Below are positions 1 to 31,058 of a stretch of 31,189 bases of DNA, piece by piece. The stretch spans positions 1 through 31,189 of IMG/VR virus record IMGVR_UViG_3300009528_000029; one strand, 5' to 3'. The notes beneath the pieces were generated by a model. It saw only the letters and a program-made list of their open reading frames with translations, did no database searches and was not told where the DNA came from. How positions within the stretch are numbered: the first letter of the stretch is position 1; each line of letters begins with the position of its first letter. Made by a program: the position numbers and the translations under genes. The stretch comes from a virus.

Positions 1-933
1 GTCGATTGGGTCCACATAGACGAAGAACCGAAGGACCAGAGCATCAGGCCCCAGGTTCTGACTCGTACGATCAACGGAGACAGAGGCAATGGTGGCAGGA
101 TCATTTACACCTTCACTCCCGAGAACGGCAGGACCGATCTAGTTATAAAGTTCATGGATGACCCCAGCCAGGATCAGTTCTTCATGCGTAAAGGGTGGGA
201 CGATGCCCCTCACATGACTCCTGACAAGCGAACCCGGCTCTTCGCTCAATACCCAGAGCATCAGCGCAAAATGAGGACACAGGGCGAGCCAATGCTGGGG
301 CATGGCCGCATCTATGACATTGCTGATGAGTACGTTGAATGCGACCCATTCGAGATCCCCGCCTTTTGGAATGTCATATGTGGTCTAGACTTCGGGTGGG
401 ACCATCCACAGGGACTAATCAAACTGGCAATCGATCCAGACAACGATATTATCTATCTGGTCAATAGCTGGAAGGCCTCCAAAGTTAGCGCAAACGATGC
501 TTTCGGAGCTACCCAGGCATGGTCCAAGGACATACCCATAGCGTGGCCCCAGGACGGACTACAGCACGAGAAGGCCAGGGACAGCTCCGTGCAGTTAAAG
601 GACCATTACGTCAAAGCCGGGTTCAAAATGGTCGAAAGCCATGCGACATGGATGAAAGGCGGTAACTCCGTGGAGGCTGGAATCTATGAGATATTGGACA
701 GGGCCCGCAAAGGCCTGTTCAGGATATTCCGGGGGCAGAATGATTTCATGGACGAGTGGAGGCAGTACCACCGAGACGAGGGAGGCAAGATAGTCAAGGT
801 GCGTGATGACCTCCTGGACCCAGTAAGGTATGCTATAATGATGAGTAGGTACGCCAAGGCCAAGGGCAGTATAGGAGCCCCGACAAAGGTGAGGATGCCG
901 CAGCCGTTGAAGGCCAGGGAGCGGCGAAGATAA
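1..933 (+). CDS. Terminase large subunit, 3' part (5' end outside window)
   Basis: Packaging motor: ATPase plus headful nuclease that cuts and pumps concatemeric DNA through the portal. The frame is open from base 1 (310 residues visible). Residues 4-10 read VHIDEEP, a Walker B with catalytic acid; residues 37-40 (TFTP) fit the coupling motif that follows it. The RNase H-fold nuclease starts at GLDFG (Asp130) and ends with the acidic DDLLDP segment near residues 269-273. The Walker A half is missing because the window starts inside the gene, not because the gene is broken. It is followed by a terminator, so packaging genes are uncoupled from the portal operon. Family assignment is firm; the exact subfamily is not. 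Confidence 0.95.
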   Translation, partial: VDWVHIDEEPKDQSIRPQVLTRTINGDRGNGGRIIYTFTPENGRTDLVIKFMDDPSQDQFFMRKGWDDAPHMTPDKRTRLFAQYPEHQRKMRTQGEPMLGHGRIYDIADEYVECDPFEIPAFWNVICGLDFGWDHPQGLIKLAIDPDNDIIYLVNSWKASKVSANDAFGATQAWSKDIPIAWPQDGLQHEKARDSSVQLKDHYVKAGFKMVESHATWMKGGNSVEAGIYEILDRARKGLFRIFRGQNDFMDEWRQYHRDEGGKIVKVRDDLLDPVRYAIMMSRYAKAKGSIGAPTKVRMPQPLKARERRR

Positions 934-28667: not shown

Positions 28668-28704
28668 TCTCCATAGTGGAGAACATATTGTGTGGTGCAA
28701 TATG
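28668..28704 (+). other. Two tandem hairpins before a terminator
   Basis: TCTCCA/TGGAGA (28668-28673 with 28677-28682) and CATATTG/CAATATG (28684-28690 with 28698-28704), back to back with the terminator stem. The 100-base gap holds no gene with a usable start, so this may be a structured 3' end or the tail of a small RNA. Confidence 0.5.
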
Positions 28705-28705
28705 A

Positions 28706-28746
28706 GAGGAGGCCCCTATCTGGGCGGAGGGGGCCTCCTCTTTTTT
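28706..28746 (+). terminator. Strong intrinsic terminator
   Basis: Perfect 11-pair stem GAGGAGGCCCC/GGGGCCTCCTC (28706-28716 with 28730-28740) followed by TTTTTT. It ends the transcript carrying the HTH and endonuclease genes. Confidence 0.9.
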
Positions 28747-28758
28747 GTCTTTTTTGTG

Positions 28759-28787
28759 TTGACATAAAGTCACACAGCGGCTATAAC
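28759..28787 (+). promoter_or_regulatory. Strong promoter of the pentapeptide-repeat gene
   Basis: TTGACA (28759-28764), 17 bases, TATAAC (28782-28787). The same hexamers and spacing occur in the early promoter at 20047. It is followed by TTAAATCACAC, which recurs at 30337. Confidence 0.85.
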
Positions 28788-28795
28788 TTAAATCA

Positions 28796-28821
28796 CACAG
28801 AGGGAACAATAACAGGGGAGG
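28796..28821 (+). repeat. Leader repeat, copy 1
   Basis: CACAGAGGGAACA, a short spacer and GGGGAGG. The same leader lies at 29299-29323 before the next gene. Confidence 0.75.
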
Positions 28822-28826
28822 ACAGT

Positions 28827-29294
28827 ATGGATTTGATGGTAGTATTAAAATTGCACTTGTCGTGGCTGAACAATGAAAGTGAGGGCAAACGTGCCAACCT
28901 GCGCGATGCCGACCTGCGCGGTGCCAACCTGCGCGGTGCCGACCTGCGCGGTGCCGACCTGCGCGGTGCCGACCTGCGCGGTGCCGACCTGCGCGATGCC
29001 GACCTGCGCGATGCCGACCTGCGCGGTGCCGACCTGCGCGATGCCGACCTGCGCGATGCCGAACTGCGCGGTGCCGACCTGCGCGATGCCGACCTTGATT
29101 TTGCGTCGTGGCCCTTATGTTGCGGAAGCTTAGGCGTGAAAGTGGATGTCAAGATTTCAGCGCAACTCGCCTATCACTTCTGCCGCATTGAATGTGAAGA
29201 TGATGAAGTCAAGGCGGCTCAAGAGGCTTTGAGGGTACTGGCTAATAAGTTTCACCGTGTGGATGAGTGCGGGGAGATCGAATCCAAAAAGTAA
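28827..29294 (+). CDS. Pentapeptide-repeat protein (155 aa)
   Basis: Starts at ATG 28827 (GGGGAGGACAGT). After a 22-residue lead-in there are 13 full A(D/N/E)LR(D/G) units plus one degenerate unit (residues 23-92), which form a right-handed quadrilateral beta-helix of ~3.5 turns. Members with DNA-like shape (Qnr, MfpA) protect or inhibit gyrase, but these need more turns, so that role is only possible. The C-terminal domain ([31 protein letters not shown]...[10 protein letters not shown]) matches a tail seen on many bacterial pentapeptide proteins. Driven by its own strong promoter. Confidence 0.88.
28893..29087 (+). repeat. Thirteen 15-bp tandem repeats inside the pentapeptide gene
   Basis: Unit GCC(g/a)ACCTGCGCG(g/a)T, thirteen full copies, almost all differing at only two positions. 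The DNA itself, not just the protein, is conserved. Confidence 0.95.
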
Positions 29295-29605: not shown

Positions 29606-29959
29606 ATGTGCGAATTAGCAGTGTTGAAAGGCAAGACCCTTTCGGATATCAGCAATACGGTAGAAGAGATTATCTTCACCTGCGACGATGGCACAAAGTA
29701 TAGGATGTACCACGATCAGGACTGTTGCGAGAGTGTGACTGTCGAGGACATCTGCGGAGACTTGAACGATCTTATCGGGGCTCCTATTCTCGCGGCGGAA
29801 GAACGGTCTAACAGCGAGGACCCCAAGGAGGAGTGCGACGAGTCGTGGACATGGACGTTCTACGAGCTGGCCACCATCAAGGGCGCAGTCACGATCCGGT
29901 GGTATGGTGAGTCTAACGGCTACTATGGTGAAGAAGTAAGTTTCCAGGAATGGTGGTGA
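29606..29959 (+). CDS. DUF7448-like protein
   Basis: 117 aa. The signature blocks are [60 protein letters not shown] and [32 protein letters not shown], strongly conserved in short phage and bacterial proteins of unknown function (the D-Q-D-C-C-E-S motif in particular). No enzyme role assigned. AGAGGAGAGACGAGG lies upstream. Confidence 0.8.
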
Positions 29960-30044: not shown

Positions 30045-30276
30045 GGTATCCGAAGGCAAGATAGAAGGTCTATGTAGGATTCCGGGATGGAATTATGATT
30101 CCGTTGTGATATGTCTCATGCGAAACCTGGGGAGATGGACGGTAGGCTCCTCGATGACTCTGGTAAGCGACATTGACGTGGCAAGGGAGATGTCGGAATG
30201 CGTAAGTGCTGTGTTTGCCAAGTTGTACGAGATCAAGGCAAGTCCAAAGTTTGACGCCACGAAGACTGAGGATTAG
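30034..30276 (+). CDS. Small hypothetical protein (80 aa)
   Basis: Unrecognised. AGGGAGACGAG lies before the ATG. Beta-rich first half (EGLCRIPGWNYDSVVICLMRNLGRWTVGSSMTLV), then a helix (VAREMSECVSAVFAKLYEI). Last gene before a 527-base gap. Confidence 0.6.
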   Translation: MRIEVSEGKIEGLCRIPGWNYDSVVICLMRNLGRWTVGSSMTLVSDIDVAREMSECVSAVFAKLYEIKASPKFDATKTED

Positions 30277-30318
30277 ACTTGCAATAGCGGCGGTATGTGA
30301 TAGACTTGTGTCTCCTTG

Positions 30319-30347
30319 TTGCAGATAAAGACACAATTAAATCACAC
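30319..30347 (+). promoter_or_regulatory. Promoter-like remnant
   Basis: TTGCAG-ATAAAGACACA-TTAAATCACAC resembles the promoter at 28759 (TTGACATAAAGTCACA...TTAAATCACAC) but lacks the ~12 bases that hold its -10 box. The 11 bases TTAAATCACAC are identical (28788 and 30337). Probably inactive or weak. Confidence 0.35.
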
Positions 30348-30421
30348 TATCTAGAAGGGATGTCTCGCGAGAGCGTCCGGCCAAAGGCTTTATCGGCGAC
30401 AAGGACTTCTAGGTGGCTCAC

Positions 30422-30452
30422 GGGGGCTACCGATTACGGTGGCCCCCTTTTT
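30422..30452 (+). terminator. Strong intrinsic terminator
   Basis: Eleven-pair stem GGGGGCTACCG/CGGTGGCCCCC with one U-G pair, four-base loop ATTA, then TTTTT. Ends any transcript from the left. Confidence 0.9.
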
Positions 30453-30456
30453 ATTT

Positions 30457-30763
30457 GCTGCCCTGGTCCCGCCAGTGAGACCTTTAGCAAATCCGGCAAA
30501 GTGTCCGGGGAAGGCTGGCAGCGAAATCCAGAAGGCAATGCCTGCCCGGCAACCTTCGCCCCAAGCGACAAGTTCAAAAGTCCAGTCATGGCCCCGACGA
30601 TTCGTTATCGGCATCCGCATATAGCGGAAAGAATCGGAAGGGTGGCAGAGGACTATAAACTTTCTGTCCTGTGGGAACCATCACCTGATCCGGTCTTGTA
30701 GGTGGTGGGAGTCTTGAGCAGTCAAGGCTAAGGGAACCGAGTACCCCTGCTTCGTCGCGGGGG
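30457..30763 (+). ncRNA. Candidate structured non-coding RNA (~300 nt)
   Basis: Stems in order: TTTGCTGCC/GGCAGCGAA (30454-30462 with 30517-30525) enclosing CTGG/CCAG and CCGG/CCGG; CGATTC/GAATCG (30598-30603 with 30631-30636) enclosing CCGC/GCGG; AGGAC/GTCCT (30649-30653 with 30666-30670); CCATCACCT/AGGTGGTGG (30678-30686 with 30700-30708); AGTCTTGA/TCAAGGCT (30710-30717 with 30722-30729); CCCCTGC/GCGGGGG (30744-30750 with 30757-30763). The last three each contain one U-G pair that would be an A-C mismatch on the other strand, favouring a plus-strand RNA. Known classes such as tRNA, tmRNA or RNase P were not recognised. Confidence 0.55.
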
Positions 30764-30803
30764 GAAAGGGCGTGAGCTATGCACAAAACAAAAACCAGGG
30801 GAG

Positions 30804-31058
30804 ATGAGCGTGGATATAACAGATAAATATATTGAGGATCTTTTTGAAGGCACAGACTTCGGCGCGTCAACTAACAGCAGCGTTAAAGCAAAACGGAAGC
30901 AGATACTCAAAACCTTGCGCGACCAAGCTTCTGGCTATTGGTCTGGCCAAACGGCATACCACATCGTAGTCCATGGCGGTTTTCTGGTGGACGCAAAACG
31001 CGGAGCCAGCAAGCATCTTACTATGCTGGGCAAGGCATTTATGAAGGCAGAAGGCTAG
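30804..31058 (+). CDS. Small hypothetical protein (84 aa)
   Basis: Unrecognised. The ATG at 30804 abuts GGGGAG, so the GTG two codons on (30810) may be the true start. Sequence: an acidic start (TDKYIEDLFEGTDFG), a basic helix (KAKRKQILKTLRDQASGYWSG), then HIVVHGGFLVDAKRG. Soluble. Confidence 0.6.
   Translation: MSVDITDKYIEDLFEGTDFGASTNSSVKAKRKQILKTLRDQASGYWSGQTAYHIVVHGGFLVDAKRGASKHLTMLGKAFMKAEG

What the first reader, a model, noticed from the sequence alone, without database searches (positions are those of the whole stretch)
30457..30763. A ~300-nt series of tandem hairpins in a gene-free region
Six stem groups follow one another with short spacers; the last three have 7-9 pairs and each holds a single U-G that works only in a plus-strand RNA. 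No coding frame explains them and no known RNA family was recognised. Position directly behind a strong terminator suggests a separately transcribed phage RNA or a 5' leader of the gene at 30804.
Basis: partly seen in the sequence, partly recalled or inferred. Interest (0 to 1): 0.68.

Follow-up and report, generated by a model that had tools for sequence, protein, structure and literature searches.

The report
Hairpin-rich untranslated leader in a phage
Behind a strong transcription stop signal, a P22-like phage carries a 533-base gene-free stretch whose last part folds into a row of four hairpins as plus-strand RNA; the hairpins are real, but no relative was found anywhere, so it is most likely an ordinary structured gene leader, and a new kind of RNA cannot be shown.

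Summary
The hairpins exist and are on the plus strand. Four stem-loops of 7-10 pairs lie within 120 nt (30644-30763). Only 4 of 5000 dinucleotide shuffles of the region do as well, and the minus strand has none. The only other stretch of this phage that reaches four lies at the pentapeptide-repeat gene. The 5' half (30457-30560) folds no better than chance. The folding energy of the whole region (z -2.1 to -2.5) is matched by coding parts of the same phage. The true gene-free gap is larger, 30277-30809. It also holds a dyad, a branched stem-loop and a strong intrinsic terminator upstream. The next gene probably starts at GTG 30810, not at 30804. No Rfam family, no supported coding frame, no promoter-like site inside the region, and no homologue were found in any collection searched. 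Covariation therefore could not be tested. Homologues of the downstream gene in other phages have no such leader. Best reading: a lineage-specific, read-through 5' untranslated leader placed behind a terminator that controls or insulates the next operon. A free-standing new RNA is not excluded, but nothing positive supports it.

The parts
30251..30279 (+). promoter-like site TTGACG-17-TAGACT at the end of the preceding gene; a second, weaker one TTGCAA-16-TAGACT with an extended -10 (TGATAGACT) at 30279-30306
   Evidence: 9/12 and 8/12 consensus matches; about 1.6 such sites are expected by chance in the 2.7 kb scanned, so weak
30296..30346 (.). A1: long imperfect dyad TGTGAT..TTGTGTCT / AGACACAA..ATCACA; operator-like in DNA or a hairpin in RNA
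   Evidence: fold of 30286-30420
30347..30416 (+). A2: branched stem-loop closed by an 11-pair stem (30347-30357 with 30406-30416)
   Evidence: fold, z -2.2 on the plus strand and -1.1 on the minus strand; no Rfam family
30422..30456 (+). strong intrinsic terminator: 11 pairs, loop of 4, T-rich tail TTTTTATTT
   Evidence: 30286-30456 folds at z -4.5
30457..30560 (+). 5' half of the reported region; predicted stems not better than chance
   Evidence: z -0.86, 41 of 200 shuffles as good
30644..30763 (+). cluster of four tandem hairpins: 30644-30668, 30678-30708, 30710-30729, 30744-30763
   Evidence: 4 of 5000 shuffles reach four or more in 125 nt; none on the minus strand
30798..30803 (+). Shine-Dalgarno (GGGGAG) of the next gene; may pair with CCCTGGT 30461-30467 if the RNA starts near 30457
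   Evidence: sequence; pairing probability about 1.0 for RNA 30457-30850 but 0.11 for RNA 30286-30850
30810..31058 (+). next gene, 82 codons plus stop, probable start GTG 30810 (ATG 30804 abuts the Shine-Dalgarno); unknown function, phrog_18088

Best explanation
The region is the untranslated leader of the operon that begins at GTG 30810. It is made as plus-strand RNA by polymerases that pass, or are allowed to pass, the strong terminator at 30422-30456. The 533-nt gap 30277-30809 works as a transcription and translation control segment between two gene blocks of a P22-like podophage: promoter/operator-like DNA, then a stem-loop and terminator that stop most transcription, then a structured leader. 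The hairpins at 30644-30763 would protect or insulate the mRNA 5' end, and may modulate ribosome access to the Shine-Dalgarno at 30798-30803. Shown: the geometry, the strand preference, the terminator, and the lack of homologues in the collections searched. Inferred: transcription, read-through and any regulatory effect.
For: Plus-strand-only folding. A hairpin cluster rarer than chance. By my reading of the ORF list it is by far the largest gene-free gap of the phage; the next largest are about 190-225 nt. Strong terminator upstream, no terminator downstream, and no 9/12 promoter-like site inside. A gene with a good Shine-Dalgarno follows directly and has homologues in other phages.
Against: Homologues of the downstream gene have no such leader: gaps of 77, 115, 249, 3 and 11 nt and one overlap. 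The long-range pairing with the Shine-Dalgarno depends on where the RNA starts. An alternative helix that could act as an antiterminator (30412-30431) is matched in length in 7.5% of shuffles. No expression data, no covariation.
Confidence: 0.42

Rival explanations
1. No dedicated function: GC-rich, partly decayed intergenic sequence (for example remains of a lost gene or of DNA gained by recombination) in which some hairpins arose by chance.
For: No homologue anywhere searched. Energy z-scores within the range of coding windows. The 5' half is not better than shuffles. The phage is mosaic: a 99.6-99.99% identical contig switches to an unrelated terminase sequence at about window 888.
Against: Four or more tandem hairpins in 4 of 5000 shuffles and strand asymmetry. 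Phages rarely keep 500 nt without use (general knowledge).
Confidence: 0.33
2. A free-standing structured non-coding RNA of the phage, about 300-350 nt, of a kind not in Rfam.
For: No Rfam family even at E up to 10. Well-defined 3' hairpins. Size and gene-free location.
Against: No promoter-like site of 9/12 within it and no terminator behind it. A Shine-Dalgarno and gene follow directly. Not found in 95 related or neighbour-sharing loci plus 78 DUF7448-neighbour loci with a covariance model of the 3' part.
Confidence: 0.12
3. A DNA-level site: replication origin, packaging (pac) site or attachment site; the RNA-like folds are incidental.
For: Long gene-free stretch with inverted repeats. It lies between the early genes and, presumably, the terminase genes, where lambdoid phages keep control sites. 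A1 is a good DNA dyad.
Against: The U-G pairs and the weak minus-strand fold of 30457-30800 favour RNA over duplex-DNA symmetry there. No direct repeats or iterons. No integrase gene was seen among the ORFs examined.
Confidence: 0.07
4. A group I intron or another ribozyme or retroelement RNA.
For: The segment GGCAGAGGACTATAAAC followed by a P8-like stem and GGGAGTC recalls group I core motifs (from memory only).
Against: RF00028 gives no match at E up to 10 in this genome, while the same search rings in control genomes. No reverse transcriptase, IscB or TnpB gene was seen nearby, and no split gene. The 17-mer recurs elsewhere only in unrelated contexts.
Confidence: 0.02

Closest known systems
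Lambdoid late-operon control region (late promoter, short leader RNA, terminator tR', antitermination into the late operon); from general knowledge
   Same: The order promoter-like DNA, structured RNA, intrinsic terminator, next operon, in a phage with a P22-type terminase
   Different: No Q-like antiterminator recognised among the proteins scanned. The promoter is weak by consensus. About 350 nt of structured RNA lie after the terminator, and the genes behind it are not identified as late genes
HK022 put RNA (PMC9378689)
   Same: Cis-acting structured phage RNA beside terminators, made of stem-loops
   Different: put RNAs are about 70 nt, two stem-loops, and lie downstream of the early promoters. 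The reported region is about 300 nt and lies behind the terminator; put similarity itself was not tested
GOLLD and ROOL RNAs (PMC12286853)
   Same: Structured RNAs encoded in phages
   Different: Rfam holds these families and none matched here. They are often near tRNA islands, which are absent here. They show extensive covariation and GOLLD exceeds 800 nt in many members; here about 300 nt and a single sequence

Membership tests
Any Rfam 15 RNA family | Covariance-model score at or above the family's gathering score | tested here: not met
   0 matches in the window; best weak hits concern the terminator only or are far below cut-off
Group I intron (RF00028) | Match to the conserved catalytic core | tested here: not met
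   No match at E up to 10; controls ring
GOLLD / ROOL | Match to the Rfam model, typical size and tRNA neighbourhood | tested here: not met
   No Rfam match, no tRNA in the window
Terminator-regulated (attenuated or antiterminated) leader | Intrinsic terminator between promoter and the operon it controls | tested here: inconclusive
   Terminator 30422-30456 is present; the promoter before it is only consensus-like and its use is not shown
Terminator-regulated (attenuated or antiterminated) leader | Mutually exclusive antiterminator pairing | tested here: inconclusive
   An 8-pair helix 30412-30431 competes with the terminator, but 8 pairs or more occur in 7.5% of shuffles
Terminator-regulated (attenuated or antiterminated) leader | Measured read-through under a regulating factor | not testable with these tools
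   Needs transcription assays or RNA-seq
Structured RNA under selection | Compensatory base changes in homologues | not testable with these tools
   No homologue found

The most novel reading that the evidence does not exclude
An orphan class of about 300-350 nt phage structured RNA, not represented in Rfam, that acts as a discrete RNA or as a regulatory leader behind a terminator.
Probability: 0.1. Interest if true: 0.55.

Novelty: new member of a known kind. Interest (0 to 1): 0.22.

Why it matters
If it is a leader, it is one more example of a phage placing a long structured untranslated region behind a terminator between gene blocks; useful for annotation, not surprising. It would matter more only if homologues with covariation, or a discrete transcript, were found.

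Tried and rejected
Coding: a 134-codon plus-strand frame and two minus-strand frames were tested; no Pfam match, and for the 134-codon frame no convincing phage homologue and codon statistics like non-coding. The codon test is not decisive, since one plausible real gene scored lower. Group I intron idea from motif resemblance: tested and dropped. Motif scans (18-, 16-, 17- and 18-mers) of viral and genome collections returned nothing or unrelated contexts. Relatives by terminase, DnaB, DUF7448, the 80-aa and the 84-aa neighbour genes: none carries the region by blastn, nhmmer or, for the subsets searched, single-sequence covariance models. Antiterminator in the upstream part: geometrically possible, but expected at this length in 7.5% of shuffles. 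Shine-Dalgarno sequestration: depends on the assumed 5' end (that script stopped with an index error after printing the two results used). Repeat within the window: none of note. Limits: models of single sequences are weak, exact-pattern scans find only close relatives, and no metagenome scan was available. The tandem-hairpin criterion (7 pairs, loop up to 15, 3 G-C pairs, 125 nt) was chosen after seeing the hairpins, so its p-value is optimistic.

Full report
What the window is. The window is an entire virus record of 31,189 bases. Its terminase is related to those of P22, Sodalis phage phiSG1 and Pseudomonas podophages at about 45-54% identity. It also has a P22-type portal, a head protein, an Erf-like annealing protein, a DnaD-like loader and a DnaB helicase. 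A second contig (L083) is 99.6-99.99% identical to the window where compared within 888-25377, but stops inside dnaB and so does not reach the region.

Observation. The three last hairpins are present as reported, and a fourth (30644-30668) precedes them. In the partition function the three are nearly certain (probability 0.98-1.0). Each carries one or more U-G pairs that would be mismatches on the other strand. The whole region folds at z -2.1 to -2.5 on the plus strand and -0.3 on the minus strand. Four perfect stems of at least 7 pairs within 125 nt were reached by 4 of 5000 dinucleotide shuffles. In the phage itself the only other stretch that reaches this is 28675-29204, over the pentapeptide-repeat gene and the terminator before it; no minus-strand window does. 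The criterion was set after seeing the hairpins, so this is supportive but not a clean p-value. Against it, the 5' half is ordinary (z -0.9), and 12 of 103 plus-strand 300-nt windows of this phage, most of them coding, have z of about -2.3 or lower. Folding energy alone therefore says little.

Surroundings. The gap between the 80-aa gene (ends 30276) and the next gene is 533 nt, by my reading of the ORF list the largest in the phage. The next gene has its Shine-Dalgarno GGGGAG at 30798-30803, which leaves no spacing to the ATG at 30804 and six bases to GTG 30810. The homologue in L002 aligns with a start at that GTG. The upstream 180 nt hold a long dyad (30296-30346), a branched stem-loop (30347-30416) and an 11-pair intrinsic terminator (30422-30447 with its T tail). 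Together these fold at z -4.5. Promoter-like matches lie at 30251-30279 and 30279-30306; none of 9/12 or better lies in 30457-30803, and no terminator follows the hairpins. The region is therefore more simply read as part of a transcript that continues into the gene at 30810 than as a separate RNA.

Coding. A frame of 134 codons crosses the terminator and the region (30297-30701). It has non-coding-like codon statistics (0.00 against about 0.04-0.33 for most genes, though two plausible genes also score at or below zero), no Pfam match, and only a chance-level phage match. Coding is unlikely but not strictly excluded.

Homologues. None was found. Methods: blastn against 50,697 phage and 72,556 plasmid records; search of 39 related viral records; blastn and nhmmer over the loci held; covariance models of the 3' part (R1) and of the upstream part (R2) over 95 loci plus the window, and over 78 more loci; exact motif scans of IMG/VR and of GTDB genomes, whose hits were checked one by one and lie in unrelated contexts. 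Relatives found through the terminase, DnaB and DUF7448 genes do not carry it. The gene after it has homologues in Aeromonas and Vibrio phages, but with 115, 249, 3 and 11 nt, or an overlap, before it, and 77 nt in L002. So there is no conserved leader of that gene family, and covariation cannot be tested.

Known families. No Rfam family matches, even at E up to 10 apart from chance hits and hits to the terminator. A resemblance to group I core motifs was tested and not met. GOLLD and ROOL are not matched and no tRNA is near. The arrangement works like a terminator-controlled phage operon boundary, as in lambdoid late control, or distantly like put RNA antitermination. But no Q-like protein was recognised among those scanned, and an antiterminator helix in the upstream part is within chance.

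Verdict. A real plus-strand hairpin cluster in a real gene-free control segment. Most likely it is a lineage-specific structured 5' leader behind a terminator (0.42), with chance or decayed intergenic sequence the main rival (0.33). A free-standing new RNA stays possible (about 0.1), with nothing positive to support it. Interest 0.22.

Noticed in passing
window 1-890: A contig (IMGVR_UViG_3300024429_000030) that is 99.6-99.99% identical to the window over the parts compared within 888-25377 has a terminase with no blastn similarity to the window upstream of about 888: a recombination boundary at the end of the terminase large-subunit gene.
   Followed up: partly
28758-28798 and 30320-30347: The 11-mer TTAAATCACAC occurs exactly twice. 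At 28788 it directly follows a good promoter-like sequence (TTGACA-17-TATAAC); at 30337 the flanking sequence looks like the same promoter with its -10 part deleted.
   Followed up: partly
30412-30456: GGTGGCTC (30412-30419) can form an 8-pair helix with the 5' arm of the terminator and is the preferred fold before the 3' arm is made; 7.5% of shuffles do as well.
   Followed up: yes
28827-29294: Pentapeptide-repeat protein gene made of a tandem DNA repeat (GCCGACCTGCGCGGT and variants), behind a terminator and the best promoter-like sequence of the region.
   Followed up: no
29606-29959: DUF7448 protein (Pfam E 4e-32), common in unrelated environmental phages; function unknown.
   Followed up: no
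30804-30810: The gene called at ATG 30804 most likely starts at GTG 30810, judged from Shine-Dalgarno spacing and the L002 homologue.
   Followed up: yes
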